Shown in pieces: positions 51,052 through 63,994 of a DNA stretch of 64,000 bases. The stretch's first letter is position 1; every line of letters starts with the position of its first letter. Source of the DNA: a virus; IMG/VR virus record IMGVR_UViG_3300038415_000014, positions 119,534 through 183,533 of that record. The stretch is one strand, 5' to 3'. The notes beneath the pieces are model-generated. The model saw only the letters and a list, made by a program, of their open reading frames with translations. It was not told the DNA's origin and ran no database searches. The position numbers and the translations under genes are program-made.

Positions 51052-51054
51052 AAT

Positions 51055-51906: not shown

Positions 51907-51951
51907 GTGGAACTTGACCCTTGGGTCAAGTTGGCTAATTTAGTCAAGTTG

Positions 51952-52032: not shown

Positions 52033-52095
52033 ATAATAAGGCGTGATCCAAGCCATCGTATCTTGACCTTTGACATAAAAGCCTACCTTTGCTGT

Positions 52096-52797: not shown

Positions 52798-52829
52798 CAA
52801 TAACACCTTTAGTTGGGTACGGCAACAGT

Positions 52830-52917
52830 TGGTGCACGAGAGAGGAATTGAACCTCCACGGGAATTACCCCACGGGTTTCTAAAACCCGCGCGTCTGCCT
52901 AGTTCCGCCACTCGTGC
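52830..52917 (-). tRNA. tRNA-Leu (UAG)
   Basis: Class II tRNA with long variable arm. Acceptor GCACGAG/CTCGTGC, anticodon arm CGGGT-TTTAGAA-ACCCG (codon CUA), T-loop TTCAATT, ACCA encoded. Confidence 0.93.
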
Positions 52918-52919
52918 GT

Positions 52920-52997
52920 TGGTACCCCCGATACGAATTGAACGTACAACCTCCTGCTTGTAAGGCAGGCGCTTCTACCGGATTGAGCTACAGGGGC
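52920..52997 (-). tRNA. tRNA-Val (UAC)
   Basis: Acceptor GCCCCTG/CGGGGGT, anticodon arm CCTGC-CTTACAA-GCAGG, T-loop TTCAATT, ACCA encoded. Confidence 0.92.
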
Positions 52998-53003
52998 ATG
53001 AAT

Positions 53004-53079
53004 TGGTGCTGATGGCGGGACTCGAACCCACAACCTACGGCTTATGAAACCGCCGCGCTACCTGTTGCGCCACATCAGC
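53004..53079 (-). tRNA. tRNA-Met (CAU), elongator-like
   Basis: Acceptor GCTGATG/CATCAGC (paired first base, so not an initiator), loop TTCATAA, T-arm GTGGG-TTCGAGT-CCCGC, ACCA encoded. Could be tRNA-Ile2 if the C34 is lysidinylated. Confidence 0.9.
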
Positions 53080-53081
53080 AT

Positions 53082-53156
53082 TGGTACCCCTGAAAGGACT
53101 CGAACCTCCAACATTCGGCTTCGAAGGCCGCTACTCTTCCATTGAGTTACAGGGGC
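53082..53156 (-). tRNA. tRNA-Arg (UCG)
   Basis: Acceptor GCCCCTG/CAGGGGT, loop CTTCGAA, T-loop TTCGAGT, ACCA encoded. Confidence 0.9.
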
Positions 53157-53160
53157 ATAA

Positions 53161-53493
53161 CTAACGACGACTTCTACAGTTGACACTTCCGCCGGCATTG
53201 ACACTTCCGCCAATGTCATCAGCGTGAAGACTTCCACCAGCGGTAGCTGAACCCTGGATGTTTCCAGCATGAACACTCCCTCCAGCGGTCACGTTACCCG
53301 CTACGTCTCCACAGGTAACAGACCCTCTGTCAGCTCGAACGTTGATGAGGGGTCCTTCCCACTTGATCTCTACAACGCCTTGGAGCCCACCCTCTATGGT
53401 CACCCCATCAATAGAGACAACCCCGTCAACTATCGAAAGGTTGGACCCAGATGGGCTTTCTATGCGTTTACCGTTGATTATGATTACAGGCAT
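53161..53493 (-). CDS. Beta-solenoid (polymer-forming/bactofilin-like) small protein
   Basis: 110 residues from the ATG at 53493. The start VIIINGKRI and SIDGVTI is followed by a run of hexapeptide-type repeats (GSVTCGDVAGNVTAGG, GSVHAGN, GSATAGG, GSLHADD, GSVNAGG), which build a narrow right-handed beta-helix. Cys appears at two turns. Such proteins are often structural or scaffold modules; its role here is unknown. Its place inside the tRNA array suggests an accessory gene. Confidence 0.65.
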   Translation of the reverse strand: MPVIIINGKRIESPSGSNLSIVDGVVSIDGVTIEGGLQGVVEIKWEGPLINVRADRGSVTCGDVAGNVTAGGSVHAGNIQGSATAGGSLHADDIGGSVNAGGSVNCRSRR

Positions 53494-53515
53494 GGACTGA
53501 ACTACACCAATCATG

Positions 53516-53643
53516 AGCCCCCGGAGGGATTCGAACCCTCAACACACGGCTTCGAGGTAAACTACAGAGGGGTTGTGAATCCTCCGGATGAACTCAGTCC
53601 CTCACCTTTGAATCCGGAACTCTATCCGTTGAGTTACGGGGGC
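53516..53643 (-). tRNA. tRNA-like locus with a ~55-nt insertion in the anticodon region
   Basis: 5' part: acceptor GCCCCCG, D-arm ACTC-AACGGATA-GAGT. 3' part: T-arm GAGGG-TTCGAAT-CCCTC and acceptor CGGGGGC, which pair perfectly with the 5' part. The total is 128 nt instead of about 73. The extra sequence falls between the anticodon-stem halves, and a near-duplicate of GAGTTC..CCGGA..TTCA occurs inside it. The central anticodon-stem pairs (CGG/CCG) could still form. It is either a broken tRNA, a product of recombination, or a tRNA with a small intron-like insert. Discriminator base is U. Confidence 0.5.
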
Positions 53644-53647
53644 ATAG

Positions 53648-53720
53648 CGATCCTGGTGAGACTTGAACTCACAATCTCCAGCTTCGGAGGCTGTTGCTCT
53701 ATCCATTAAGCTACAGGACC
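53648..53720 (-). tRNA. tRNA-Arg (CCG)
   Basis: Acceptor GGTCCTG/CAGGATC, anticodon arm ACAGC-CTCCGAA-GCTGG, T-arm GTGAG-TTCAAGT-CTCAC. No CCA encoded. Confidence 0.9.
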
Positions 53721-53722
53721 AT

Positions 53723-53798
53723 TGGCGTCCGCGAGAGGACTCGAACCTCCATCCTCCAGCTTCGCAAGCTGTTGCTCCTCCAATCGAGCTGCGCGGAC
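53723..53798 (-). tRNA. tRNA-Arg (GCG)
   Basis: Acceptor GTCCGCG/CGCGGAC, loop TTGCGAA, T-loop TTCGAGT, GCCA at the 3' end. GCG is a rare anticodon in bacteria, where ACG (inosine) normally reads CGC. Confidence 0.88.
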
Positions 53799-53838
53799 AT
53801 TGGCTGGCTCAACCCACCCAAGGGTCGAGCCAGAGGAA

Positions 53839-54345
53839 TCAGAAACGATACAGTTGAGCCTCGAAGGCTACCGACTCCCGAGTGAGGTTCTCTTCGTCTT
53901 CACCAATCACGGCCACACTGGAGTCAGGGATCAGCTTTGATATGTGAACCACCGCATTCCAGATGACCCCTTGGATGTTTTGCTTCAAGTTCTCAATCTT
54001 GGTCTCAGCATCGAAGATATCCCTACAATGCTTACGGATATCACAGAAAGTGCTTGGATTCACCCAGATGTGGTCAACCTTTCTGTCCCGGCGCTCTACC
54101 GTATGAAAAGCATCGGCGATGATATCGGGTGTGATGAAGGTCCCTGTCGTCAAGGAACGCTCGAAGCAATGAAGGGCTTCCTTCAAGTGCTCGAACCCCT
54201 TCTCCTGCATCGGGTTTCGGTGAGTCTTCTCACTCACCTTGGTAGCCAGCAAGAGGAAGTCACTTCTCATCCGATTGATGACTTCGATCTGACTTTCTGT
54301 GAACAATCTCTTAGGTCCGAATGTAGCTTGAATGTCTAAAGGCAT
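53839..54345 (-). CDS. Conserved phage protein, unknown function
   Basis: 168 residues from the ATG at 54345 (GGAGG seven bases upstream). The pattern WVNPSTFCDIRKHCRDIFD and IQGVIWNAVVHISKLIPDSSVAVIGEDEE resembles a family seen in many large phages, where it is reminiscent of a capsid-protein domain; this likeness is from memory. N-terminus GPKRLFTESQIEVINRMRSDFL is helical. Lies between two tRNA-Arg genes. Confidence 0.6.
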   Translation of the reverse strand: MPLDIQATFGPKRLFTESQIEVINRMRSDFLLLATKVSEKTHRNPMQEKGFEHLKEALHCFERSLTTGTFITPDIIADAFHTVERRDRKVDHIWVNPSTFCDIRKHCRDIFDAETKIENLKQNIQGVIWNAVVHISKLIPDSSVAVIGEDEENLTRESVAFEAQLYRF

Positions 54346-54376
54346 GCTAACCTCCAAGACCCAAGTACACCGTAAT

Positions 54377-54452
54377 TGGTACCCCTGGCAGGATTCGAAC
54401 CTGCAACAAACGGTTTAGAAAACCGCTAGTCTATCCGTTGACCTACAGGGGC
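54377..54452 (-). tRNA. tRNA-Arg (UCU)
   Basis: Acceptor GCCCCTG/CAGGGGT, anticodon arm GCGGT-TTTCTAA-ACCGT, T-arm GCAGG-TTCGAAT-CCTGC, ACCA encoded. Confidence 0.93.
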
Positions 54453-54456
54453 AAAA

Positions 54457-55008
54457 CTAAACGGGCAGAGTTCCTATGTTGCCAGCCATCAGGGCTGCGT
54501 AGTCGAACTTCTTCCCGAGGCAATCGTGGATGCTGACAGTCCCCTTCCCGTATTCGAGGAACTTGTCGTTGTAGATGAGAATGCTTCGGGGAATCTTGAT
54601 CTCCCCCTTGACGAAGGAAACCCCCGTGGTGGTCATTCGATAGAACCCGGCGCGGTTGCTCCCATCCTTGCGCTTCTCTTCGGGCTTCTCCTCGATGACC
54701 CTCCAATATCTGAGCTTGGCCCAATCCCCACCGCGAACCGCTGGACCGATCGTTGCCATGCTTGAGAGATACTCGGGGACGTGGAGCCACCCTTCCCCAT
54801 CATTGTGCAAGAAATGTCGGTAGATCAAGATGGCTACGTAAGCCATGGACCCCGTGATCTCGCGCTCGTAGACCTTGACAAGCTGGCTACAACACGGACA
54901 GTAAACCCCGGAGCCACGAGACAGGCGCTTCATTTTGCCCTGAAGCTCGGCGATAACTTCCCGGGCTTCGGGCTCCAAGGTCATCTTGATGGGCTTCTTC
55001 GCTGACAT
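54457..55008 (-). CDS. Conserved phage protein with zinc pair and wHTH-like region
   Basis: 183 residues from the ATG at 55008. CPCCSQLVKVYEREI near residue 37 supplies one Cys cluster. WAKLRYWRVIEEKPE and GFYRMTTTGVSFVKG resemble a winged-helix region used by a phage family annotated as DNA-binding hypothetical proteins; that likeness is from memory. Could be a regulator. Located between tRNA-Arg and a Y-RNA-like element. Confidence 0.6.
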   Translation of the reverse strand: MSAKKPIKMTLEPEAREVIAELQGKMKRLSRGSGVYCPCCSQLVKVYEREITGSMAYVAILIYRHFLHNDGEGWLHVPEYLSSMATIGPAVRGGDWAKLRYWRVIEEKPEEKRKDGSNRAGFYRMTTTGVSFVKGEIKIPRSILIYNDKFLEYGKGTVSIHDCLGKKFDYAALMAGNIGTLPV

Positions 55009-55033
55009 ACCAAGCGAATACACCGAAAAACTG

Positions 55034-55137
55034 AGGGAGACAAGAGAAGCCGAAAGATGCCTCCGTAAGGCGATCCCCCATAGTGGCGGGGGATTTCAGA
55101 TTTGAACTAAATGTACTTCCGAGCAAGCATTCTCCCT
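55034..55137 (-). ncRNA. Y-RNA-like element (YrlA type) with permuted tRNA mimic, copy F
   Basis: Closing stem AGGGAG/CTCCCT; AATGC after the 5' strand; CTCTTGT before the 3' strand; second stem CGGAAG/CTTTCG. Inside, in order: a T-arm (TTTAG-TTCAAAT-CTGAA), a 7-bp stem ATCCCCC/GGGGGAT capped by an 8-nt loop in place of the acceptor ends, and a D-arm (GCC-TTACGGA-GGC with the GG pair). It starts at the CCA end of tRNA-Gly(UCC). The layout matches bacterial YrlA RNAs that bind Ro60/Rsr. Confidence 0.7.
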
Positions 55138-55212
55138 GGAGCGGACGAAGGGAATCGAACCCTCAACATTCAGCTTGGAAGGCTGACACTCTACCAATTG
55201 AGCTACGTCCGC
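55137..55212 (-). tRNA. tRNA-Gly (UCC)
   Basis: Acceptor GCGGACG/CGTCCGC, loop CTTCCAA, T-loop TTCGATT, TCCA encoded. Confidence 0.92.
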
Positions 55213-55219
55213 AAAACGT

Positions 55220-55297
55220 TGGAGTCGAGGGTGGGATTTGAACCCACGAATCGTCGGTTTTGCAAACCGCGCCCTTGAACCACTTGGGTACCTCGAC
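55220..55297 (-). tRNA. tRNA-Cys (GCA)
   Basis: Acceptor GTCGAGG/CCTCGAC, loop TTGCAAA, T-arm GTGGG-TTCAAAT-CCCAC, U73 as needed by CysRS, CCA encoded. Confidence 0.92.
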
Positions 55298-55321
55298 ATA
55301 ACTGAGGAACCCGATAACCTG

Positions 55322-55954
55322 CTACAGGCCGAGTTCCGTATCTACAAAGTCTGGGTAGCTAGCATGAAGCTTCTTGGCCAGCTTAGACCAAGTTTCAGCT
55401 TCAGCTCGATAGCGACCCTTGTCTGCATCACTAGTCTCTTGCTTCACATCGTTGATAGTGAAGTGAACCTTACCTGTTATGAACTTGTAGCAAAGCTCAA
55501 GCTTCATAACAGCCCATTTCCCGAGAAGCTTGAAGTCATACTTCGGGAAGTCATCCGCGAACTCTAGACACTTATCAGCAGTATCATAGGGGGTCAACGT
55601 TGCGAAGTGTACTTGGTCCTTTGAGTCTAGATACAAGCACCCTGCTACTCCAGCATAGGTCGTTGCCTTCGGCTTGTTCCAGACTTCACGATCCGCAATC
55701 TTTGGGTTCGTAGTCTGACTTACCATACGGTAGCCCTTCTTAGGGACATACTCGACCCAATAACGGATCTTGCATCGAAGACGGAAGCCGTAGGGATAGT
55801 CGTCGACTACGTAAGCATTGCTCATCGAGTCATGCCCGTAGAGTGGTTTCTGGACGCTTGCCGTCTTATGTGTCTTGATACTCGCCTCGATGAAACGAGA
55901 TGCAACATTTTGGGCCGTTAGGGCGTCTTGGAAGGCAACCAGCTCGCGAGTCAT
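55322..55954 (-). CDS. Conserved phage protein with N-terminal VASRF motif
   Basis: 210 residues from the ATG at 55954. NVASRFIEA near residue 18 is one of the recurring motifs. The middle (AYVVDDYPYGFRLRCKIRYWVEYV, VSQTTNPK, WNKPKATTY) follows a protein type found in many large phages; function unknown. Between tRNA-Cys and tRNA-Gly. Confidence 0.65.
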   Translation of the reverse strand: MTRELVAFQDALTAQNVASRFIEASIKTHKTASVQKPLYGHDSMSNAYVVDDYPYGFRLRCKIRYWVEYVPKKGYRMVSQTTNPKIADREVWNKPKATTYAGVAGCLYLDSKDQVHFATLTPYDTADKCLEFADDFPKYDFKLLGKWAVMKLELCYKFITGKVHFTINDVKQETSDADKGRYRAEAETWSKLAKKLHASYPDFVDTELGL

Positions 55955-55982
55955 ACTCTGGACCATAGCATAAGAGGTTTAG

Positions 55983-56055
55983 AGCGGGTAACCAGGATCG
56001 AACTGGCCGATTCCAACTTGGCAAGCTGGTTCCTCACCATTGAGGAGATACCCGC
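55983..56055 (-). tRNA. tRNA-Gly (GCC)
   Basis: Acceptor GCGGGTA/TACCCGC, anticodon arm CCAGC-TTGCCAA-GTTGG, T-loop TTCGATC. No CCA encoded. Confidence 0.9.
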
Positions 56056-56068
56056 ATAGAAACAGAGA

Positions 56069-56170
56069 AGCCCGACTCTCGCCGGGCTCTCAAGGGGGCG
56101 GCCGTTCCCGGCAACCCTCCACCACTACTCAATGATGGCCCACTGAGTAGGTGACCACCCTAGCATGAAG
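56069..56170 (-). ncRNA. Structured spacer with terminator-like hairpin
   Basis: Between tRNA-Gly(GCC) and the Y-like copy B there is no gene. The spacer holds CTACTCA/TGAGTAG (7 bp), a GCCG-GGAA-CGGC hairpin with a GNRA-like loop, and AGCCCG/CGGGCT at 56069-56088 followed by TCTCTGTTTC. May be a small RNA ending in a terminator. Low to moderate support. Confidence 0.4.
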
Positions 56171-56174
56171 ATTT

Positions 56175-56306
56175 CCCGAAGACAAGAGATCGTGAAGACG
56201 ACTAGGGCCTCCCATTAGCTGACGACCAGCTCGCGCCAATCGACGGGATTCGAACCCGCATTCCTTACTTTCGAGGTAAATGTAGTCCCCAACAGCATTC
56301 TTCGGG
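56175..56306 (-). ncRNA. Y-RNA-like element (YrlA type) with permuted tRNA mimic, copy B
   Basis: Closing stem CCCGAAG/CTTCGGG, AATGC box, second stem TGGGGAC/GTCTTCA, then ACGATCTCTTGT. Inside: a hairpin like an anticodon arm (TTTAC-CTCGAAA-GTAAG), T-arm GCGGG-TTCGAAT-CCCGT, an 8-bp acceptor-like stem CGATTGGC/GCTGGTCG capped by the GNRA loop GCGA, and a D-arm-like GCT-AATGGGA-GGC. It begins 3 nt after tRNA-Thr(GGU). Confidence 0.7.
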
Positions 56307-56309
56307 CGG

Positions 56310-56382
<73 letters not shown>

Positions 56383-56383
56383 A

Positions 56384-56692
56384 TTATTTGTTGTAGTACT
56401 CTGGATTAGATAACTCGAAACGGAGCAGAATCTTCCTAGAAGAATCAAAGACAGCCGTGATGTAACCAAGCTCTGAGTCAGGCATTACCCCCACAATCCC
56501 GTTAAGGATCCCAAGGAGTCCAACCACCGGAACCTTACCCTCAGTGTTGACTTGAACCGAAGAGTGGTCTGTGAGAGCTTGATTTGTAGGGGTCCTGAAC
56601 TCGACCAGATTATACATTGCTGATGGATCAAGAGCCAAGTACTCATTGAGGCTATTGATGACTCGATTGGCTAGAGCTTCCTCAGTTGACAT
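56384..56692 (-). CDS. Small conserved phage protein
   Basis: 102 residues from the ATG at 56692. NEYLALDPSAMYNLVEFRTPTN and VVGLLGILNGIVGVMPD recall a small protein common in large phages; function unknown. Ends one base before tRNA-Thr(GGU). Confidence 0.65.
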   Translation of the reverse strand: MSTEEALANRVINSLNEYLALDPSAMYNLVEFRTPTNQALTDHSSVQVNTEGKVPVVGLLGILNGIVGVMPDSELGYITAVFDSSRKILLRFELSNPEYYNK

Positions 56693-56713
56693 GACTCTCA
56701 AATACACCAAGAG

Positions 56714-56789
56714 TGGAGCGGGAGAAGGGAATCGAACCCTCGACAACGTGCTTGGGAAGCACGGACTCTACCAGCTGAGCTACTCCCGC
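56714..56789 (-). tRNA. tRNA-Gly (CCC)
   Basis: Acceptor GCGGGAG/CTCCCGC, anticodon arm CGTGC-TTCCCAA-GCACG, TCCA encoded. Confidence 0.92.
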
Positions 56790-56799
56790 ATTTGATTAG

Positions 56800-56871
56800 A
56801 GCTGGTGATGGGACTTGAACCCGCAACATCCTGCTTACAAAACAGGTGCTCTACCATTGAGCTACACCAGC
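56800..56871 (-). tRNA. tRNA-Thr (UGU)
   Basis: Acceptor GCTGGTG/CACCAGC, anticodon arm CCTGT-TTTGTAA-GCAGG, T-loop TTCAAGT. No CCA encoded. Confidence 0.92.
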
Positions 56872-56878
56872 GAAGTTG

Positions 56879-56951
56879 TGGAGCTGAGGAGAGTTGAACT
56901 CCCGATCTTTGCAGTGCGAGTGCAACGCTTTCCCAACTAAGCTACAGCCCC
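56879..56951 (-). tRNA. tRNA-Ala (CGC)
   Basis: Acceptor GGGGCTG/CAGCTCC with the G3:U70 alanine identity pair, anticodon arm TTGCA-CTCGCAC-TGCAA. No CCA encoded. Confidence 0.9.
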
Positions 56952-56955
56952 ATAG

Positions 56956-57027
56956 TGGAACCAGACGGAGTCGAACCGACGTACTTAGATTGCAGATCTA
57001 AGGTCCTCCCAATTAGACGATGGTCCC
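56956..57027 (-). tRNA. tRNA-Ala (UGC) with C33
   Basis: Acceptor GGGACCA/TGGTTCC includes G3:U70, supporting Ala. Anticodon arm TTAGA-TCTGCAA-TCTAA has C at position 33 and a possible extra T-A pair in the loop, which is unusual. The upstream HNH reading frame ends inside its D-arm. Confidence 0.7.
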
Positions 57028-57591
57028 ATAGTTACCTACCCATTTGTGTTCTGGTACACCTCTAGTTTTCAATGTGTGACACCAAACACATAAGACTTGC
57101 CAGTTTCTGATGCTATTGTTCTTTCGGTCAGAATCGATGTGGTGAACATCTAGCATCCTCGGGTCCTCCGAGTAGCCACAACTACCGCACCTAGCCCCGT
57201 AGATACGAAACGCTTGTTCTCGATAGTTGGTACCCTCCCCATTACCAGTACCATAATGTGGCGGGTGAAGTTCTATCAAACCTCCAATCCGTTGAGCTGT
57301 ATCTTTACAAGATCTAGTGCAGAAGTGTAGGTCTTTCCTTGACCTTTTTAGCTTACCAGGCGTAGTCTCAAATGGCTTACCGCACCAATTACAGACAACC
57401 ATAATTCTAGCTCGCGAACCCAATCGGGCACAGGAGCGACAACAGTACTTCTTGCTAACATGCTTTGGAGCATAGAAGGGAGTATTGCAAGACGAGATTG
57501 AACAGTATCGGAGCACCAAGACTCGCATTGACCCGTCGTAGGTGTCCGAGACGATCTCTAACAGAGGATTGGGTGTCATACAGACTTGCAT
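57013..57591 (-). CDS. HNH endonuclease with zinc knuckles, probable homing gene
   Basis: 192 residues. Two N-terminal Cys clusters (KYCCRSCARLG, VCNWCGKPF, HFCTRSC) and a C-terminal HNH: CGSCGYSEDPRMLDVHHIDSDRKNNSIRNWQVLCVWCHTLK. The last codons and the stop lie inside tRNA-Ala(UGC), so gene and tRNA share about 15 bases. That arrangement fits insertion at a tRNA by a homing gene. Confidence 0.85.
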   Translation of the reverse strand: MQVCMTPNPLLEIVSDTYDGSMRVLVLRYCSISSCNTPFYAPKHVSKKYCCRSCARLGSRARIMVVCNWCGKPFETTPGKLKRSRKDLHFCTRSCKDTAQRIGGLIELHPPHYGTGNGEGTNYREQAFRIYGARCGSCGYSEDPRMLDVHHIDSDRKNNSIRNWQVLCVWCHTLKTRGVPEHKWVGNYGTIV

Positions 57592-57631
57592 ACACCATGC
57601 GAGTCACGAACGCTCCTCAAGTATCAGTACA

Positions 57632-57778
57632 CTAATTGTGCTTATCAGGACGCTGACAATGAGTATCATGATGGAGATACTCGCCCTGATAACACCAGGA
57701 GTTGCAGTACCCACAGACTTGAACGTGGGGTTCCTTCTTGGACTCAACCTTAGGACCCTTCACGATTTCTGCTTCCAT
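57632..57778 (-). CDS. Small Cys/His peptide
   Basis: 48 residues from the ATG at 57778 with GAGG seven bases upstream; longer frames run into tRNA-Ala(GGC). CGYCNSWCYQGEYLHHDTHC could bind one or two zinc ions. Function unknown. Confidence 0.5.
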   Translation of the reverse strand: MEAEIVKGPKVESKKEPHVQVCGYCNSWCYQGEYLHHDTHCQRPDKHN

Positions 57779-57795
57779 AGAAACCTCGTTCTTAG

Positions 57796-57867
57796 TGGAG
57801 CTGAAGGGGATCGAACCCTCAACCTCTTGTCTGCCAGACAAACGCTCTCCCATTGAGCTACAGCCCC
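57796..57867 (-). tRNA. tRNA-Ala (GGC)
   Basis: Acceptor GGGGCTG/CAGCTCC with G3:U70, anticodon arm TTTGT-CTGGCAG-ACAAG, T-loop TTCGATC. No CCA encoded. Confidence 0.92.
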
Positions 57868-57868
57868 A

Positions 57869-58369
57869 TTACCTACGAATCTTAGCCATGATCTTCTTGA
57901 GCATACGCATCATGTGGAGTCCAGTCATCTCAGGGTCGTCGATTACTTCCCTGAGCTCCACAATCTTGGAGAGGTTAACCCCACCTCTGAGATCACGAGG
58001 TAGGTAACTGATATCGAGTTTCAACCTGCCACCGTGACAACCTATGTGCATTGCAACAGAGTCAACTGGTTGAGGTGGAGCAAAAAAGTAGAACAGATCA
58101 GTCGAGGTCTGACTCGAGTTCATCGAGTACCGGTCCCCAAGAGACCTCCTGAGGATCGAAAGGAAACTAGGAAGAAGAGCGCTGATTGAATCTCTACCTG
58201 TATCCAGTATCTCTGCATCTATTGCAGGATTACTCTGGAATGAAGTCTTGGTTGCGTACCGATCAAATACCCACTGGGGTATCTCCGGTCGATACCCAGA
58301 CATGGCAACCTTGAAGCCCCATCGAGCAGCAACTCTTCTTACTAGGCGGTCCATCCTAGTAAGTAACAC
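57869..58369 (-). CDS. Unknown protein with N-terminal RVAARW motif
   Basis: 166 residues. LVRRVAARWGFKVA lies at residues 9-22. The C-terminus is basic (MMRMLKKIMAKIRR). No enzymatic motif. Ends one base before tRNA-Ala(GGC). Confidence 0.6.
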   Translation of the reverse strand: MLLTRMDRLVRRVAARWGFKVAMSGYRPEIPQWVFDRYATKTSFQSNPAIDAEILDTGRDSISALLPSFLSILRRSLGDRYSMNSSQTSTDLFYFFAPPQPVDSVAMHIGCHGGRLKLDISYLPRDLRGGVNLSKIVELREVIDDPEMTGLHMMRMLKKIMAKIRR

Positions 58370-58382
58370 ATAGGTAAGTTAG

Positions 58383-58453
58383 TTGGGATACCAGGACTTG
58401 AACCTGGATAGACGGATTCAGAGTCCGCTGCCCTACCATTAGACGATATCCCA
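58383..58453 (-). tRNA. tRNA-Gln (CUG)
   Basis: Acceptor TGGGATA/TATCCCA, anticodon arm GCGGA-CTCTGAA-TCCGT, T-loop TTCAAGT. No CCA encoded. Confidence 0.92.
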
Positions 58454-58460
58454 ATGAGGC

Positions 58461-58652
58461 TCAACGAGTATGCTGAACCTTCTCAAACAAGTCAAGTTGA
58501 AGTGTACCCAACGGTTCAGGGGCTAGAACAATCTCTTGCACAGGCTCACCTTGAACCGCGCGCAATGAGTCAGCCCAACATTTGTAGCTACAGTACTCAG
58601 TACCTCGATAGACAACTGGATGTTGCCCGCACCAAGCACAGGGGTGTTTCAT
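58461..58652 (-). CDS. Small zinc-finger-like protein
   Basis: 63 residues, PCAWCGQHPV and YCSYKCWAD, a four-Cys zinc site of the kind found in MYND/Znf_ribbon peptides. Start codon has a weak ribosome site. Lies between tRNA-Trp and tRNA-Gln. Confidence 0.55.
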   Translation of the reverse strand: MKHPCAWCGQHPVVYRGTEYCSYKCWADSLRAVQGEPVQEIVLAPEPLGTLQLDLFEKVQHTR

Positions 58653-58662
58653 GGTTACTTTG

Positions 58663-58733
58663 CAGGGTCACTCCGACTTGAACGGAGATTAACGGTTTTG
58701 GAGACCGTCGTCCTACCATTGAACGATGACCCT
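58663..58733 (-). tRNA. tRNA-Trp (CCA)
   Basis: Acceptor AGGGTCA/TGACCCT, anticodon arm ACGGT-CTCCAAA-ACCGT, T-arm CTCCG-TTCAAGT-CGGAG, G73 as in tRNA-Trp. No CCA encoded. Confidence 0.92.
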
Positions 58734-58737
58734 ATAA

Positions 58738-59292
58738 TTACACCAAGGAAGCGTAGCGTGACGCCACTTTCTTGGTAAGAAACTCATCTTCAGTGCAAGG
58801 TGACTGGCGATCAGCCACATCAACCTTGTGAAGCTTGAACTCGATATCAGCCTCTTCGACAGTGGCTCGGTAGGGCCGAACCATATTGATCATGTCTTCC
58901 CACAAGTCAACCCGAGCGATGCTAGGATGCTCTCCAAGTATCCTTCGGATCTGTTCGACCTTGAAGGCTTGTGTGTCTGTACGGTCCGACAAGTGAACCT
59001 CGTCGAACTCAAGACCCCTCTGCCTCAGGAGCTCGTGGACCCTGCTGGTGAACCCCTCCGCGGGACGTCCAGTGAGAAGGACGACGTAGCTGTCACCCTC
59101 ACTCAGGGCCTTCCGAGCTGCATTGACTGTGGACCCGATCCACCAGTCCTCAGGCGGCTCTTTAGGAAGCATTGGTGGGTTCAACGAGACTGGGTCAAAC
59201 CACCAACCATCCTTATCCTTCCACCAGTCCGGCGGGGTAGGGCTGTTGAAGAGCGTCCCGTCGAAGTCAAGGATGTAAAGCCTGCGGAGCAT
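58738..59292 (-). CDS. HAD-superfamily phosphatase, RNA-repair (SAK-type) family
   Basis: 184 residues. RRLYILDFDGTLFNSPTPPDWW is the HAD motif I (DxD) with the extra WW segment characteristic of HAD domains found in 'Swiss Army Knife' RNA repair proteins (family recall from memory). VVLLTGRPAEGF is motif II (Thr), and FKVEQIRRIL and VDLWEDM supply motifs III and IV. Expected to remove phosphates from RNA ends or nucleotides. The C-terminus carries KKVASRYASLV, one of the recurring motifs. Sits in the tRNA cluster, in keeping with RtcB and KptA. Confidence 0.75.
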   Translation of the reverse strand: MLRRLYILDFDGTLFNSPTPPDWWKDKDGWWFDPVSLNPPMLPKEPPEDWWIGSTVNAARKALSEGDSYVVLLTGRPAEGFTSRVHELLRQRGLEFDEVHLSDRTDTQAFKVEQIRRILGEHPSIARVDLWEDMINMVRPYRATVEEADIEFKLHKVDVADRQSPCTEDEFLTKKVASRYASLV

Positions 59293-59366
59293 ACCCAGGT
59301 CCTAGCATTAAAAGATTGGTGCTTCTGCCAGTAACAACTAGTATGAATCTCACAGAATCAACGAAG

Positions 59367-59445
59367 TGGCGCAGCTAGCGGGATTTGAACCCGCGATCTA
59401 CTCCGTGACAGGGAGCTGGGGACGGCCGGACTCCCCTATAGCTGC
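59367..59445 (-). tRNA. tRNA-Asp (GUC)
   Basis: Acceptor GCAGCTA/TAGCTGC, anticodon arm GCTCC-CTGTCAC-GGAGT, T-arm GCGGG-TTCAAAT-CCCGC, GCCA encoded (G73 as in tRNA-Asp). Confidence 0.92.
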
Positions 59446-59452
59446 ATAAGTT

Positions 59453-59581
59453 GCGGAGACAAGAAGTCGCAAAGACATTGTTGTCGGCTGCTCTGCCAAC
59501 TGAGCTACGTTCGCCGAAGCGAACGGTGGGACTCGAACCCACGACCAGCTGAATGATTGTAGTCCTTACTGCATTCTCCGC
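59453..59581 (-). ncRNA. Y-RNA-like element (YrlA type) with permuted tRNA mimic, copy A
   Basis: The clearest copy. Closing stem GCGGAG/CTCCGC; AATGC box; perfect 8-bp second stem GTAAGGAC/GTCTTTGC; then GCGACTTCTTGT. Inside are, in order, one anticodon-stem strand (TCAGC), T-arm GTGGG-TTCGAGT-CCCAC, acceptor CGTTCGC joined by the tetraloop UUCG to GCGAACG, TA, D-arm GCTC-AGTTGGCA-GAGC, and the other anticodon-stem strand (GCCGA). It is a tRNA opened at the anticodon and closed at the acceptor. It begins 3 nt after the end of tRNA-Arg(CCU). Confidence 0.8.
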
Positions 59582-59583
59582 GG

Positions 59584-59656
59584 TACTCCAGACTGGATTC
59601 GAACCAGTGACCCCAGGTTTAGGAAACCTGTATTCTATCCGCTGAACTACTGGAGC
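59584..59656 (-). tRNA. tRNA-Arg (CCU)
   Basis: Acceptor GCTCCAG/CTGGAGT, anticodon arm CAGGT-TTCCTAA-ACCTG, T-arm ACTGG-TTCGAAT-CCAGT. No full CCA. The upstream gene stops inside its 5' part. Confidence 0.92.
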
Positions 59657-60000
59657 GTAACAGGCCAAATCCCCTCACCCTTGGTGAATGACTTGGCTAA
59701 GTTCTCTCGACCTTGGGCTGTCTTCAGATACTCACCGGTTAGATTGCGAACATCCTCCGGGACACCCTCGGCCCAAACTGATTCCTTCAAGTTGACAAGG
59801 CCAATCTCCCAAAACTCTTGAGGCTTGGAATGGGTACCCCGTTTGAAATTGATGCGGTCCCACAACTTGAGATACCATGGCCTAGGTTGTTCTAGATCGG
59901 GTGCGGTACAGTACCCTATAGTACGAGTATAAGGATCATCACAGCAAAGGATCTCGCATCCTGGGTTACTTCTCACATACTGCTTGATAGCTCCAACCAT
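59647..60000 (-). CDS. Unknown protein, ends inside tRNA-Arg
   Basis: 117 residues. GCEILCCDDPYTRTIGYC in the N-terminal half and LTGEYLKTAQGRENLAKSF in the C-terminal half. The latter resembles LTEYFQSALGRQLMARLL in the next gene, so the two may be distant paralogues. Stop codon lies in the first bases of tRNA-Arg(CCU). Confidence 0.55.
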   Translation of the reverse strand: MVGAIKQYVRSNPGCEILCCDDPYTRTIGYCTAPDLEQPRPWYLKLWDRINFKRGTHSKPQEFWEIGLVNLKESVWAEGVPEDVRNLTGEYLKTAQGRENLAKSFTKGEGIWPVTLQ

Positions 60001-60033
60001 CTAGAAGAAGTTTTCGTACCGCATACTCTGGTA

Positions 60034-60351
60034 CTACACCAAGCTACTCAACTCTGGTGATCGCATACCGTTGGTGAGGAGACGCGCCATCAATTGACGC
60101 CCGAGGGCCGATTGAAAGTACTCGGTCAAGATTTCACAAGCTCTCTCTGGGAGATTCTTGACTGACACACTGAAGCTCTTGCACTTGATCCGCCAAGTTG
60201 GTCGATTGAGCAAGAACGGATCGATGTCCTTTATGGTGAACCCATAGAGCAAGTCCTCCGGAACATCAGCGAAGACTATCACGCGCCATGGGTGCTCTTT
60301 CACATAGTACAGGATGGCGATTATCATCTCACGGATGTTTTCGAAATCCAT
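60034..60351 (-). CDS. Unknown protein, possible paralogue of its neighbour
   Basis: 105 residues, starting FENIREMIIAILYYVKEHPW, with a mixed alpha/beta pattern and a C-terminal helix similar to that of 59647-60000. Overlaps the upstream small basic gene by 28 bp. Function unknown. Confidence 0.5.
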   Translation of the reverse strand: MDFENIREMIIAILYYVKEHPWRVIVFADVPEDLLYGFTIKDIDPFLLNRPTWRIKCKSFSVSVKNLPERACEILTEYFQSALGRQLMARLLTNGMRSPELSSLV

Positions 60352-60524
60352 CCCCGTGATACACCGAGATCTCTGAGCTGCTCTCTCTCAGAGCACCTGC
60401 TTGCTAACTCTTGTTGGGTGAGTATCCTGTGGTTTCGTCGACCATCGGTCTTACGGAGCATGCACATCCCGCAACAACCCTTGATACCCGCTCGGCGCCG
60501 ATGCCGTCTTTTGAAGTTTGCCAT
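60324..60524 (-). CDS. Small basic conserved phage protein
   Basis: 66 residues with AAGGAGG five bases before the ATG. MANFKRRHRRRAGIKGCCGMCM followed by a polar tail is a small basic Cys-containing protein type that I recall from many tailed phages. Likely RNA or DNA binding. Function unknown. Confidence 0.7.
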   Translation of the reverse strand: MANFKRRHRRRAGIKGCCGMCMLRKTDGRRNHRILTQQELASRCSEREQLRDLGVSRGWISKTSVR

Positions 60525-60587
60525 GGTTCCTCCTTGCCGCCGTCAGCGGCTCGAACGTGAACCAAGGAATTCTTCGAGATGACACTT

Positions 60588-60884
60588 TCAGACCTTATCG
60601 ACAACCAAGGACCTGCGGAACCTGGGGTCCCCTTCGAGCTTGAACCTCTTGGACGTGTCCTGCCCGGGTGGGAGCTTCATCTCCCACCCCTCTGTCGCCC
60701 AACTATAGTGGTTGACCGTGACCCTGTCTCCGTTGACAGACTTCACCTCTAGCTGAACCCCTCGACGAATCTCAGACCACCAGTCACCGCTCTTCGTCCA
60801 GATCTTGAGGACATCCCCTTTGGACAAGGTTGATGCGACTACGAAGCGAGCAGACACTCTGGAGATAATAGTCAGGTCTTCCAC
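60588..60884 (-). CDS. Unknown protein with SH3-like region and RVSARF motif
   Basis: About 98 residues if the GTG at 60884 is the start; upstream in-frame sequence runs into tRNA-His. ISRVSARFVVAS near the N-terminus is one of the recurring motifs. The rest is beta-rich (KGDVLKIWTKSGDWWSEI, VTVNHYSWATEGWEM) and may form a small barrel. Start is uncertain. Confidence 0.5.
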   Translation of the reverse strand: MEDLTIISRVSARFVVASTLSKGDVLKIWTKSGDWWSEIRRGVQLEVKSVNGDRVTVNHYSWATEGWEMKLPPGQDTSKRFKLEGDPRFRRSLVVDKV

Positions 60885-60913
60885 ATCAAGCAAGCCACAT
60901 AAGTGAAAATTTG

Positions 60914-60986
60914 GGTGACCGACGGGACTCGAACCCGCACATATACGATTCACAGTCGTACGCCTTACCTTTTGGCTACGGTCACC
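60914..60986 (-). tRNA. tRNA-His (GUG)
   Basis: Acceptor GTGACCG/CGGTCAC with G at -1 opposite C73, the histidine identity feature. Anticodon arm TACGA-CTGTGAA-TCGTA. No CCA encoded. Confidence 0.92.
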
Positions 60987-61003
60987 ATAATGCTACTCTC
61001 CTG

Positions 61004-62023
61004 TTACCAAATGGGGAACAGTAGAAGGTTTCGTGGGTTACTGAACAACGGGCTAGGAATAGGAGCCCCAGGAGTCCACAAATGAGTACTACGCGAGTAG
61101 GTCAGAGGGATAACAGTATTTGATGCAAAGTCAGCAGCTAATGCGATATCACCAATGCCATCATTAGCCACAGCGACCTCTCCGATGTTTCCGTACCCAG
61201 TAAACACTTGACCTGCGCTGAAGGTTTCTGTCCCCGGATCATAGTTGATGGTGCGGATAATCCCACCCTCACCCTCACCATTACCACCAATTGCAGATAA
61301 ACCATCAGGTCTCCATGTCACACCATTTATGGGAACTGGTATCGAAACACGATTCCAAACGGATCCGTTCCAGATGAGACCATCTGAAGCTACTGCTGCA
61401 TTATTACTTCCAATGATCGCAGTTGAACCATCTACTGATATACCGATCGCGAAGAATCGCTCACCTGAAGTATTCAATCCAATCGGACTTCCAGATGGAG
61501 CCCAAATCCCTGTGATGGGATCACGCGCGAGCGGATAGGCAGTGTTCCCGAATTTTCCAACTGCTAGAGCACGACTACCATCCCGGGTCATGCGGACCGA
61601 ATCGAGATCAGTTGATCCAACACTGACACCAGTCTTCGTCTCCCATAGTCCCAATGAGAGGTTGAAGTCGTACGGTGTTACCAAGGACGAAAAGTCACCA
61701 CCGGAAAGCGAATGCAACCCATCAGCAGACATAGTAACAGCTGCTGCTGCCCCACCTCCTGAATTAGGAACCAGAGTTCCAGCGGTCCATGTAATACCGT
61801 TGTAGTCAAGAGGTACTATGCCACTGCCTGGATAATTAGCGAATATAAGGCGGGATCCTTGCATATTCGACGCAATGGAGTTTAGGTTGTTAGCACTCGG
61901 ACCCGCAACGATGTTCTCTACAACGGTCCACACACCTGAACTCGAATACAAAAGGTGTGTAATATTATTGGACGAATAGTTCGACACCAGGGCATGCATC
62001 GAGAAGAAGAACTTGCGGCTCAT
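61004..62023 (-). CDS. Seven-repeat beta-propeller-like protein
   Basis: 339 residues from the ATG at 62023; longer frames cross the tRNA-Ser gene. About seven repeats of about 45 residues, each with a (G/H)xWTxG or IWAPSG strand, a (S/T)xDG(S/L)xA(L/I) turn (MSADGLHSLSGG, MTRDGSRALAVG, VSVDGSTAIIGS, WRPDGLSAIGG, VANDGIGDIALA) and a final strand before the next Trp. Seven blades suggest a WD40-like propeller. There may be a short hydrophobic start (SRKFFFSMHALV). Could be a host-interaction or virion protein; it is unusual inside a tRNA array. Confidence 0.65.
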   Translation of the reverse strand: MSRKFFFSMHALVSNYSSNNITHLLYSSSGVWTVVENIVAGPSANNLNSIASNMQGSRLIFANYPGSGIVPLDYNGITWTAGTLVPNSGGGAAAAVTMSADGLHSLSGGDFSSLVTPYDFNLSLGLWETKTGVSVGSTDLDSVRMTRDGSRALAVGKFGNTAYPLARDPITGIWAPSGSPIGLNTSGERFFAIGISVDGSTAIIGSNNAAVASDGLIWNGSVWNRVSIPVPINGVTWRPDGLSAIGGNGEGEGGIIRTINYDPGTETFSAGQVFTGYGNIGEVAVANDGIGDIALAADFASNTVIPLTYSRSTHLWTPGAPIPSPLFSNPRNLLLFPIW

Positions 62024-62062
62024 ACATAGCCGCCATCCATAAGTGAAATTTGACACTAGTTG

Positions 62063-62145
62063 CGGAAGAGAGCAGAGTCGAACTGCGGTCCTTGCGGGCA
62101 TCCAGGTTTCCAAGCTGGCGGGCGACCACTCACCCCATCCCTTCC
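62063..62145 (-). tRNA. tRNA-Ser (GGA)
   Basis: Class II. Acceptor GGAAGGG/CTCTTCC, anticodon arm CCAGC-TTGGAAA-CCTGG (last pair C-C), long variable arm, T-loop TTCGACT, G73. No CCA encoded. Confidence 0.85.
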
Positions 62146-62239
62146 AAATAGACCTGCTCACCCGACGGGCCTAAACTTATTTTCACAAGGTCTACCCTCC
62201 CGGACTGTGCTTCCGAGACTGAGTAGCGGGCGAACACGG
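62146..62239 (-). other. Structured spacer between two tRNA-Ser genes
   Basis: 94 nt without a gene. TAGACC/GGTCTA closes a 40-nt region, and CCC-GTC-GGG forms an inner hairpin. It does not fit the Y-like consensus. May be processing-related; low support. Confidence 0.35.
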
Positions 62240-62324
62240 CGGAAGGTAGAGGATTCGAACCCCGATGACTTTCACCACCTAGGAAATTAGCAATCTCCCT
62301 CCAGTCCGAACTGGTATACCTTCC
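62240..62324 (-). tRNA. tRNA-Ser (GCU)
   Basis: Class II. Acceptor GGAAGGT/ACCTTCC, anticodon arm GGAGA-TTGCTAA-TTTCC, long variable arm, T-loop TTCGAAT, G73. Confidence 0.88.
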
Positions 62325-62334
62325 ATAAGTACTC

Positions 62335-62420
62335 TGGCGGAAGACGGCTGAGTCGAACAGCTTACCCTAAGGTACCCCGGGGTTCGAATCCGGTGGGCGA
62401 CCGCTCACCCTACGCCTTCC
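62335..62420 (-). tRNA. tRNA-Ser (CGA)
   Basis: Class II. Acceptor GGAAGGC/GTCTTCC, anticodon loop TTCGAAC, T-arm GCTG-TTCGACT-CAGC, GCCA encoded. The upstream gene stops inside its 5' part. Confidence 0.88.
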
Positions 62421-63196
62421 ATAGATTCCTCTAGATCTTCGATGAAGTTCTGGAGATCATCTTGGATATACTCAAAGATCGTCTTGGAAGCACCGAGACG
62501 TTTATTGAGACGCTTACCTACATCAGTATCAAAGATCCAAGAAACTAATTCGCCTCCATCAGTTGGTATTGAGTCTTCCCACTGGTCCCAATCCTTTGGT
62601 AAGTTATGAACCCAGTCTTCAAAGTAGTCGAAGCTACCCTCTTCGGTGCGACTAAATGGGAGGTCAGGAATAACTGAGATTATGCGGGTGATTGCTTGCT
62701 TCGCGGTATGGAAGTCGAATGCTTTCAGCCACTCAAGGTTAGCAGGGGTTGGACCCTCTTCAGGCATCTCTGAGAGCTCATCGATCAACTTATCTCGCCC
62801 CCATCCATTCAAAGCCCTGGTTGCAGGTGAGGACTCAATATCCTCAAGTACAGCATCCTCGTCGAATGTCTTACCTCGCCGAGTCAACTCCCTCAGCAGA
62901 GGGGCGACCGCCTTCTTAATCTCAGGCCCCAGTACTAGGGTCTCTGACAAGTCTGTCAGTTCCTTGAGTTTAGGTGTGAACTGACGATTCAGACTGGACA
63001 ATCTTTCGTCGATGGCCTCTACATACCTAGACTTATCAAGGATGGGTTTCGAATCCAAAGCTTGACTCAATGTGCTCAAGTCTTGAACGAGAGGGACCAA
63101 ATCCCAACTCATAAGTGTATGCCATGCCAACTGGAGACGCCTAGCGTCCATAGCCATCTTGTAACGAGCCGCCACTCTGCTGATAATCGAGGACAT
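62405..63196 (-). CDS. Unknown protein with N-terminal RVAARY motif
   Basis: 263 residues. MSSIISRVAARYKMAMDAR opens the protein. The body is helical with acidic stretches (ELSEMPEEGPTP, YFEDWVHNLPKDWDQWEDS). The stop lies inside tRNA-Ser(CGA). No recognised family. Confidence 0.6.
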   Translation of the reverse strand: MSSIISRVAARYKMAMDARRLQLAWHTLMSWDLVPLVQDLSTLSQALDSKPILDKSRYVEAIDERLSSLNRQFTPKLKELTDLSETLVLGPEIKKAVAPLLRELTRRGKTFDEDAVLEDIESSPATRALNGWGRDKLIDELSEMPEEGPTPANLEWLKAFDFHTAKQAITRIISVIPDLPFSRTEEGSFDYFEDWVHNLPKDWDQWEDSIPTDGGELVSWIFDTDVGKRLNKRLGASKTIFEYIQDDLQNFIEDLEESMEGVG

Positions 63197-63225
63197 CGAC
63201 TAGGAGTGAATGACCAAAAGAATAG

Positions 63226-63299
63226 TCGGGGTGACACGATTTGAACGTGCAACAACTCGGACCCAAACCGAGTCCTCTACCAAATTGAGGTACACCCCG
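63226..63299 (-). tRNA. tRNA-Pro (UGG)
   Basis: Acceptor CGGGGTG/CACCCCG with C1:G72 typical of Pro, anticodon arm CTCGG-TTTGGGT-CCGAG, T-loop TTCAAAT. No CCA encoded. Confidence 0.92.
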
Positions 63300-63302
63300 A
63301 TG

Positions 63303-63360
63303 AAGTCGAGACAAGGATCGAAAAGATGCAAGCCTTTCGGCTCCGGTGCATTCTCGACTT
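63303..63360 (-). ncRNA. Minimal Y-RNA-like element, copy D
   Basis: 58 nt. Closing stem AAGTCGAG/CTCGACTT (8 bp), AATGC box, hairpin AGCC-GAAA-GGCT with a GNRA tetraloop in place of the tRNA mimic, then TCGATCCTTGT. It begins directly after the 3' end of tRNA-Leu(GAG) and ends 4 nt before tRNA-Pro. The GNRA loop supports the minus strand. Confidence 0.6.
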
Positions 63361-63363
63361 TAG

Positions 63364-63446
63364 TACACGAGAGAGGACTCGAACCTCCACGGGATTTCTC
63401 CCAGTAGCACCTCAAGCTACCGCGGTTGCCTTTACGCCACTCGTGC
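63364..63446 (-). tRNA. tRNA-Leu (GAG)
   Basis: Class II. Acceptor GCACGAG/CTCGTGT, anticodon arm GTAGC-TTGAGGT-GCTAC, long variable arm, T-loop TTCGAGT. No CCA encoded. Confidence 0.9.
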
Positions 63447-63480
63447 GTGAGTAATTCACTTCTACACTAAGGTAAGTATC

Positions 63481-63792
63481 ATGGATCGGACACTTCAAGA
63501 CTTCGAGGACAGCGTCATCGCTTGCAACCTAGTAGCTAGGGTTGCTGAGCAGAGTACTGAAAGCGTTGTACTAGCCGGTGCTGATGACAGCAGGCAGCTT
63601 ATAGATCGCCTCGAAAGGTTAGTATCCTCAGTCGAGGATAAGACCCAAGAGCTACGAACCGCCTTTAACAAGTACCGACATGACCCGAGCAAGATGGCTC
63701 CTCAGTTGAGCAACATGATTTCGGCTGCATCAGAGATAAGCTCGAACCTACGAGTCATCAACCGTACCCTAGACGGTGTCAAGAAGGCTTAA
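63481..63792 (+). CDS. Small helical protein, the only plus-strand gene in the window
   Basis: 103 residues, with AAGG nine bases upstream of the ATG. Helical, coiled-coil-like (RLERLVSSVEDKTQEL, MISAASEISSNLRVINRTL). CNLVARVAEQ near residue 15 is a weak version of the recurring motif. It is divergent from the tRNA block, with a 34-bp gap that could hold promoters for both directions. Confidence 0.6.
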   Translation: MDRTLQDFEDSVIACNLVARVAEQSTESVVLAGADDSRQLIDRLERLVSSVEDKTQELRTAFNKYRHDPSKMAPQLSNMISAASEISSNLRVINRTLDGVKKA

Positions 63793-63804
63793 AAGTCCGG
63801 TGGT

Positions 63805-63878
63805 CGCCAGTGACAAGGGAACGTGCAGACGTCTATTGTTTTTGCGATAATGTAGTCTTACACAGCATTCAACTGGCG
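63805..63878 (-). ncRNA. Minimal Y-RNA-like element, copy C
   Basis: Closing stem CGCCAGT/ACTGGCG, possibly extended by TCCGG/CCGGA outside it; AATGC box; an 8-bp second stem GTGTA(A)GAC/GTCTGCAC with one bulge; ACGTTCCCTTGT; and the shared GACTACATT segment. No tRNA mimic inside. It lies antisense, just downstream of the plus-strand gene. Confidence 0.55.
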
Positions 63879-63936
63879 AAAACCGGAACTTAGAAACCTG
63901 TACACCGTCTTGCTTAGAGTTGCAAGGAAAAGTTTG

Positions 63937-63994
63937 ACCCTGACAAGGGAACGGCAAAGAATGGGTGTGGCCTACGCATTGATGTTCCCAGGGT
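63937..63994 (-). ncRNA. Divergent Y-RNA-like element, copy E
   Basis: Closing stem ACCCTG/CAGGGT, AATGC and CCGTTCCCTTGT boxes present, but eight extra bases lie between the stem and AATGC, and GGGAAC/GTTCCC gives an alternative pairing. It shares TGACAAGGGAACG (plus strand) with copy C 130 bp away. Weakest of the six. Confidence 0.4.

What the first reader, a model, noticed from the sequence alone, without database searches (positions are those of the whole stretch)
55034..63994. Six-copy family of Y-RNA-like (YrlA-type) noncoding RNAs in a phage tRNA cluster
Seen: six minus-strand elements at 55034, 56175, 59453, 63303, 63805 and 63937. They share a closing stem of changing sequence but kept pairing, an AATGC box, a second stem, and a 3' box CG(A/T)(C/T)..CTTGT. 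The closing stems covary completely between copies (GCGGAG, CCCGAAG, CGCCAGT, AGTCGAG, AGGGAG, each with its own complement), which argues for selected RNA structure. UUCG and GNRA loops appear only when read on the minus strand. Known: bacterial Y RNAs close their two ends into a stem holding the Ro60 site, and YrlA RNAs carry a tRNA mimic. Inference: these are phage Y RNAs, multiplied and diversified.
Basis: partly seen in the sequence, partly recalled or inferred. Interest (0 to 1): 0.93.

Follow-up and report, generated by a model that had tools for sequence, protein, structure and literature searches.

The report
Phage Y RNAs in tRNA array
A large uncultured phage carries at least five different Y RNAs, the small RNAs that normally partner the ring-shaped Ro60 protein, placed between its tRNA genes and close to RNA-repair genes, which suggests that phages keep a set of Y RNAs to manage tRNAs during infection.

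Summary
One (e3) is a full-length YrlA with its tRNA-like domain: Rfam RF02553, 55.5 bits, below the curated cut-off of 69. e1, e2 and e5 are found by a covariance model built only from other phages. e4 fits a strict descriptor (8-bp stem), and e6 is not supported. The closing stem covaries strongly across 61 distinct relatives. The same core (stem, AAUGC, second stem, UACAU, variable insert, CUUGU, stem) lies beside Ro60/TROVE genes, on the same strand, in many phages and bacteria. Two corrections apply. No TROVE gene is present in this 183.5-kb contig, although the contig ends 121 nt beyond e5, where relatives would place it. Multi-copy Y arrays are also common beside bacterial rsr genes, so multiplication is not phage-specific. 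What looks new here is the layout: four of the five start -1 to +2 nt after a tRNA's 3' end, and an RtcB, KptA, 3'-5' exoribonuclease and SpoU methylase gene block lies about 8 kb away. Most likely they are excised from the tRNA-array transcript, bind a Ro60 ring, and act in tRNA repair, decay or decoying. Function is inferred.

The parts
55034..55137 (-). Y RNA e1: closing stem AGGGAG/CTCCCT, GAATGC, stem 2, TACAT, T-arm-like hairpin (TTCAAAT loop), two further hairpins, CTTGT
   Evidence: R1 32.6 bits, E 2.7e-5 in 184 kb; descriptor; z -2.60; starts at the 3' end of tRNA-Gly. No Rfam YrlA match
56175..56306 (-). Y RNA e2: stem CCCGAAG/CTTCGGG, core, T arm GCGGGTTCGAATCCCGT, hairpin with GCGA loop, decayed D arm
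   Evidence: R1 35.5 bits, E 5.2e-6; weak YrlA 18.7 bits; 1 nt after tRNA-Thr
59453..59581 (-). Y RNA e3: full YrlA with tRNA-like domain (T arm, acceptor-like hairpin with UUCG loop, D arm)
   Evidence: RF02553 55.5 bits, positions 1-114 of 114, E 1.7e-10; z -3.50; 0 nt after tRNA-Arg, 7 nt before tRNA-Asp
63303..63360 (-). Y RNA e4: minimal 58-nt form, 8-bp stem, AATGC, GAAA hairpin, CTTGT, no tRNA domain and no TACAT
   Evidence: descriptor; R1 9.7 bits, E 0.84 only, filters off; z -2.55; fills the gap between tRNA-Leu (2 nt) and tRNA-Pro (3 nt)
63804..63879 (-). Y RNA e5: minimal 76-nt form, stem TCGCCAGT/ACTGGCGA with a bulge, GAATGC, GACTACAT, CTTGTC
   Evidence: R1 23.7 bits, E 0.0041 in 184 kb; lies 121 nt from the contig end
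63938..63995 (-). doubtful e6: stem ACCCTG/CAGGGT and GGAAC/GTTCC with a 3' CTTGT bulge; AATGC not at the stem; shares CGTTCCCTTGTCA with e5
   Evidence: not found by R1 or Rfam; z -0.74
51834..63446 (-). tRNA array (27 tRNAs by ARAGORN) in which the Y RNAs lie
50564..50915 (-). tmRNA downstream of the array
   Evidence: RF00023 113.7 bits
45925..47328 (-). RtcB RNA ligase gene
   Evidence: PF01139 E 2.5e-85
45388..45924 (-). KptA/Tpt1 RNA 2'-phosphotransferase gene
   Evidence: PF01885 E 6.2e-45
47346..47906 (-). possible 3'-5' exoribonuclease (Rv2179c-like)
   Evidence: PF16473 E 1.2e-4, 22.2 bits, below its cut-off of 27
44817..45425 (-). SpoU-family RNA methylase; about 60% identical to a gene inside the Y RNA/tRNA region of phage contig G009
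   Evidence: PF00588 E 5e-16; tblastn
58738..59292 (-). HAD domain of the 'Swiss army knife' RNA-repair type, inside the tRNA array
   Evidence: PF10307 E 1.1e-16

Best explanation
The elements are bacterial-type (YrlA-core) Y RNAs carried by a large phage. Each is transcribed with the tRNA array; its 5' end is set by 3'-end processing of the tRNA in front and, for e3 and e4, its 3' end by 5' processing of the tRNA behind. The paired ends and the AAUGC/CUUGU internal loop form the binding site for a Ro60 (TROVE) ring protein. The middle differs from copy to copy: a full tRNA mimic in e3, partial ones in e1 and e2, almost nothing in e4 and e5. One Ro60 ring can thus be fitted with different adaptors or gates, some of which look like tRNA to tRNA-handling enzymes. 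With the phage's RtcB, KptA and possible exoribonuclease, the particle most likely handles broken or misfolded tRNAs during infection, or lures tRNA-cutting host defences. Shown: sequence, structure, covariation, TROVE linkage in relatives, placement at tRNA ends, and the repair genes. Inferred: transcription, processing, Ro60 binding and function.
For: e3 matches YrlA over its full length. A model built without window sequences finds e1, e2 and e5 as its only hits below E = 1 in 184 kb. Sites chosen by AATGC-N6-12-TACAT and CTTGT, without asking for a stem, pair at 5.22 of 6 stem positions against 3.18 when the 3' halves are shuffled; all six pair in 25 of 41 against 1.6, maximum 7. In 61 distinct sequences 96.1% of stem cells pair, covariation score 1.018 against 0.07-0.17 when slid by 1-3 columns. 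Stem 2 also exceeds shuffles in phages and bacteria. In loci fetched by TROVE protein homology alone, Y cores sit beside TROVE: 17 phage loci, every hit on the TROVE strand; in 80 bacterial TROVE loci, 190 hits, all on the rsr strand. Four of five window copies start -1 to +2 nt from a tRNA 3' end (random placement mean 0.19 of 5); the same happens in other phage contigs. RtcB, KptA and SpoU genes lie near the array. In Salmonella, Rsr, Y RNAs and RtcBA share an RNA-repair operon (PMC7790460).
Against: No TROVE gene in the 183.5-kb contig by Pfam, by a four-phage profile or by a 96-sequence clade profile at full sensitivity. e3 is below the YrlA curated cut-off; e2 is a weak YrlA match, e1 has none, and e4 and e5 were not listed. 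e4 lacks TACAT and scores only 9.7 bits with R1. e2 and e5 do not fold clearly better than shuffles (z -1.03 and -1.58). No expression data.
Confidence: 0.8

Rival explanations
1. The RNAs are Y RNAs but serve as free-standing tRNA mimics or sponges (decoys for anticodon nucleases or tRNA-modifying enzymes) without a Ro60 partner, the core being a stability device.
For: No TROVE gene in the contig; e1-e3 keep tRNA-like arms; decoying of an anticodon nuclease by YrlA has been proposed (PMC7790460); RtcB and KptA nearby suggest tRNA breakage matters.
Against: e4 and e5 have no tRNA mimic, yet keep the stem with AAUGC and CUUGU; in relatives this core is tightly linked to TROVE genes; the contig ends where a TROVE gene would be expected.
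Confidence: 0.15
2. Host-supplied partner: the phage lost or never had TROVE and loads its own Y RNAs onto the host's Rsr ring, taking it over.
For: Y RNAs without TROVE in a 183.5-kb contig; G018 and G016 also carry many Y cores with no TROVE in the fragment; the same core occurs in many bacteria with rsr.
Against: Host unknown; G018 and G016 are short fragments; in most relatives the phage has its own TROVE gene.
Confidence: 0.3
3. They are relics: broken Y RNA and tRNA pieces left by recombination in a fast-changing tRNA array, without present function.
For: e2 and e6 look decayed; e6 keeps only half the core; copies differ greatly.
Against: Stems keep pairing despite complete sequence change; e3 is intact; spacing to tRNAs is exact.
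Confidence: 0.06
4. They are chance hairpins or intergenic processing signals between tRNA genes.
For: Four of five abut tRNA genes.
Against: 0.05 sites with 6 or more stem pairs expected by chance in 183 kb against 4 seen; the same core lies beside TROVE genes far from tRNAs.
Confidence: 0.02

Closest known systems
YrlA, Rfam RF02553 (bacterial Y RNA; Salmonella, Mycobacterium and others)
   Same: Closing stem, GAAUGC, second stem, ACUAC, T arm, hairpin, D arm, CUUGUC; e3 aligns end to end.
   Different: e3 is below the curated cut-off; e2 has a worn D arm; e1 is unmatched by Rfam; e4 and e5 have no tRNA domain and are shorter than the 90-150 nt given for YrlA (PMC8394870).
Y RNA arrays beside rsr in bacteria (this study's 80 GTDB loci; rsr-yrlBA-rtcBA of Salmonella, PMC7790460)
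   Same: Same core, several different copies on one strand, sometimes minimal; RtcB in the neighbourhood in Salmonella.
   Different: There the array adjoins rsr; here the copies are spread over 9 kb between tRNA genes and no TROVE gene is seen.
Ro-like protein and YrlA in cultured phages (Gordonia phage GMA2, Microbacterium phage A3Wally)
   Same: YrlA-like RNA close to tRNAs (and to a tmRNA in GMA2); unannotated in those records.
   Different: One YrlA match found, next to a strong TROVE gene.
Phage contig G009 (IMGVR_UViG_3300034782_000062)
   Same: About 183 kb, tmRNA, some 30 tRNAs, ten R1 hits, two Y RNAs starting exactly at tRNA 3' ends.
   Different: Has a TROVE gene just before its first tandem Y RNA; only four genes shared with this phage.
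Putative Y RNAs of Listeria phage CKA15 (PMC12282133)
   Same: Highly transcribed RNAs near an Rsr-like gene, suggested to be Y RNAs.
   Different: Not tested as Y RNAs there; not compared in sequence here.

Membership tests
YrlA (RF02553) | score at or above the curated cut-off of 69 bits | tested here: not met
   best copy e3 55.5 bits, e2 18.7; e1 no match; e4 and e5 not listed. The phage relatives also stay below it
YrlA (RF02553) | tRNA-like domain (T arm, acceptor-like hairpin, D arm) inside the Y stem | tested here: met
   met for e3, partly for e2 and e1 (sequence); absent in e4 and e5
bacterial Y RNA (core) | paired 5' and 3' ends with AAUGC/CUUGU internal loop, supported by covariation | tested here: met
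   e1-e5, not e6
bacterial Y RNA (core) | encoded near a Ro60/TROVE gene | tested here: not met
   no TROVE in this contig, but the contig ends 121 nt from e5; met in relatives
bacterial Y RNA (core) | binds Ro60/Rsr | not testable with these tools
   needs binding or pull-down experiments
RNA-repair operon (rsr-yrl-rtcBA type) | RtcB together with Y RNAs | tested here: inconclusive
   RtcB and KptA lie about 8 kb downstream on the same strand, not shown to be one operon; no RtcA seen among the families listed
tRNA | cloverleaf recognised by ARAGORN or Rfam tRNA above cut-off | tested here: not met
   no tRNA call at e1-e5; e2 gives 21.2 bits, below 29

The most novel reading that the evidence does not exclude
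The phage keeps a repertoire of interchangeable Y RNA adaptors, made as by-products of tRNA maturation, that load one Ro60 ring (its own, or the host's taken over) with different effector arms, so that one particle can be aimed at several RNA substrates or defence enzymes during infection.
Probability: 0.3. Interest if true: 0.8.

Novelty: new variant of a known kind. Interest (0 to 1): 0.62.

Why it matters
What phage Ro60 proteins do is unknown, although 222 phage records carry a relative. A short, cheap signature (AAUGC ... UACAU ... CUUGU within a covarying stem) now finds their likely RNA partners, including 58-76-nt forms that the YrlA model misses, in uncultured phages and in bacteria. 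The placement of Y RNAs directly after tRNAs gives a testable biogenesis route, and the neighbouring RtcB and KptA genes tie them to tRNA breakage, a main battleground between phages and bacteria.

Tried and rejected
TROVE in this contig by four profile searches: none. DUF2828, a vWA-containing family found near the YrlA-like tRNA-mimic match of phage phiM12, searched as a stand-in: none. The VWA protein beside RtcB (47976-49562) as a permuted Ro60: its sequence relatives in the PDB are inter-alpha-trypsin-inhibitor-type VWA domains, and the single-sequence fold is useless (pLDDT 35), so dropped. A closer relative of this phage reaching beyond the contig end: only two DNA-polymerase relatives in IMG/VR, neither with Y or TROVE hits; a protein near the end has no relatives. 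BLAST of the tRNA mimic against known phages also hits junctions of two neighbouring tRNA genes, so those hits were not counted as Y RNAs without other evidence. e6 rejected as a copy. Several known phages with Ro-like proteins (Mx1, Neville, phiLo, SRILMA, McWolfish, Navo) gave no R1 hit near the gene, so R1 covers one lineage of Y RNAs. Chen 2014 and Sim and Wolin 2018 are not in the library.
Full report
WHAT WAS CHECKED. The window is the last 64 kb of a 183,533-bp uncultured virus contig. Bases 50,564-63,446 hold a tmRNA and 27 tRNAs, all on the minus strand.

ARE THEY MORE THAN CHANCE? A descriptor asking for AATGC and CTTGT, 25-150 nt apart, closed by at least five Watson-Crick pairs, finds exactly four places in the whole contig: e1, e2, e3 and e4. 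All are in the tRNA cluster, with stems of 6, 7, 6 and 8 pairs; random sequence of the same dinucleotide content gives 0.05 with six or more. The descriptor was taken from the finding, so an outside test was needed. A covariance model (R1) was built from 18 short elements of other phage contigs, with no window sequence in it. It finds e2, e1 and e5 as its only matches below E = 1 in 184 kb. With filters off, e3 and e4 come next in the cluster, but at insignificant scores. e3 stands on the Rfam YrlA model (55.5 bits, full length, E 1.7e-10; curated cut-off 69). e6 is not found by anything and folds no better than shuffles.

IS THE STRUCTURE SELECTED? To avoid choosing sequences by the stem that is to be tested, sites were chosen only by AATGC-N6-12-TACAT followed by CTTGT. 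The six flanking positions pair at 5.22 of 6 on average against 3.18 when 3' halves are swapped between sites, and all six pair in 25 of 41 sites against a mean of 1.6 and a maximum of 7 in 2,000 shuffles. The best CTTGT was picked where several existed, which favours the observed value slightly. In the 61 distinct matches of R1, 96.1% of stem cells are standard pairs, with changes on both sides at all six pairs, and the covariation score drops from 1.018 to 0.07-0.17 when the partners are slid (that alignment is fitted to the stem). The second stem is supported as well: mean longest helix 8.0 against 5.2 in phages and 7.8 against 5.4 in bacteria.

WHAT THEY ARE. A pattern search of IMG/VR and an independent search by TROVE protein homology lead to the same kind of locus. 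Of 79 phage TROVE loci, 17 carry R1 matches close to the TROVE gene, always on its strand, often as tandem arrays: contig G009 has ten matches and G018 nine over the whole record. Among 80 bacterial TROVE loci, R1 gives 190 matches, all on the strand of rsr, with up to seven in a row. With the strict pattern, 40 of 160 bacterial elements are 75 nt or shorter and about half carry a T-arm motif. So minimal Y RNAs and multi-copy arrays are a general feature of this Ro60 lineage, not special to phages. The window elements share this core, and e1-e3 also keep a tRNA-like domain in decreasing likeness: e3 full, e2 with a worn D arm, e1 with a T-arm-like hairpin but no Rfam match (sequence). e4 and e5 are minimal.

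WHAT IS SPECIAL HERE. First, four of the five copies begin -1 to +2 nt from the 3' end of a tRNA gene, where random placement in the free space gives 0.19 of five, and e3 and e4 end 7 and 3 nt before the next tRNA. The same abutment recurs in G009, G018 and G016. Y RNAs therefore occupy tRNA slots in the array and are probably cut out by the tRNA-processing enzymes; this is inference. Second, no TROVE gene is detectable in the contig. The contig stops 121 nt beyond e5, on the upstream side, and in relatives TROVE lies within a few kb of the Y RNAs, so absence cannot be claimed. Third, a short run of minus-strand genes some 8 kb downstream encodes a possible 3'-5' exoribonuclease, RtcB, KptA/Tpt1 and a SpoU methylase, and a HAD domain of the RNA-repair type lies inside the array. 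The SpoU gene has a 60% identical counterpart inside the Y RNA/tRNA region of G009.

HOW IT MOST LIKELY WORKS. From established work on Rsr and YrlA (summarised in PMC8394870; operon context in PMC7790460), the closing stem holds the Ro60 ring and the tRNA-like arm is recognised by tRNA enzymes or tethers PNPase. The most likely reading is that the phage's Y RNAs do the same with its own or the host's Ro60, with arms of different kinds for different clients, in the service of tRNA repair, decay or decoying during infection. Identity as Y RNAs is strongly supported for e1, e2, e3 and e5 and well supported for e4. Ro60 binding is likely, the repair or decoy role is a guess with context, and transcription is untested.

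NOVELTY. Phage Ro-like genes are widely annotated (222 records with a relative). YrlA has been listed in a mycobacterial prophage (PMC8190616), RO60 homologues are known in mycobacteriophages (PMC12363180) and jumbo phages (PMC7824862, PMC7765460), and Listeria phage CKA15 has suspected Y RNAs (PMC12282133). From memory, Chen et al. 2014 reported Y RNAs near Ro60 in more than 250 bacterial and phage species; that paper was not available here. So this is a known kind of RNA. The dispersal through a tRNA array with tRNA-abutting ends, the five-copy set without a visible TROVE, and the RtcB/KptA neighbourhood make it a variant worth an experiment.

Noticed in passing
window 53516-53643 (-): A 128-nt tRNA-like match (47.1 bits) with long insertions in the anticodon and variable regions, missed by ARAGORN.
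   Followed up: partly
window 47976-49562 (-): 528-aa VWA-domain protein between the tmRNA and the exoribonuclease/RtcB genes; unlike Ro60 in sequence.
   Followed up: partly
window 42723-44417 (-): Phage-encoded chaperonin of the TCP-1/cpn60 family (PF00118 E 4.6e-57).
   Followed up: no
window 52096-52911, 57013-57591 and 49902-50465 (-): Three HNH endonuclease genes in or next to the tRNA array.
   Followed up: no
L065 10267-10323 (Gordonia phage GMA2): Pistol ribozyme (56.8 bits) inside the tRNA array, next to an unannotated YrlA match and tmRNA.
   Followed up: no
L068 3216-3749 (Rhodobacter phage RcXuper): Alphaproteobacterial-type (permuted) tmRNA directly followed by an unannotated YrlA-like tRNA mimic.
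   Followed up: no
L080 4093-4911: Seven or more tandem Y RNAs, several with T-arm motifs, directly in front of a phage TROVE gene.
   Followed up: partly
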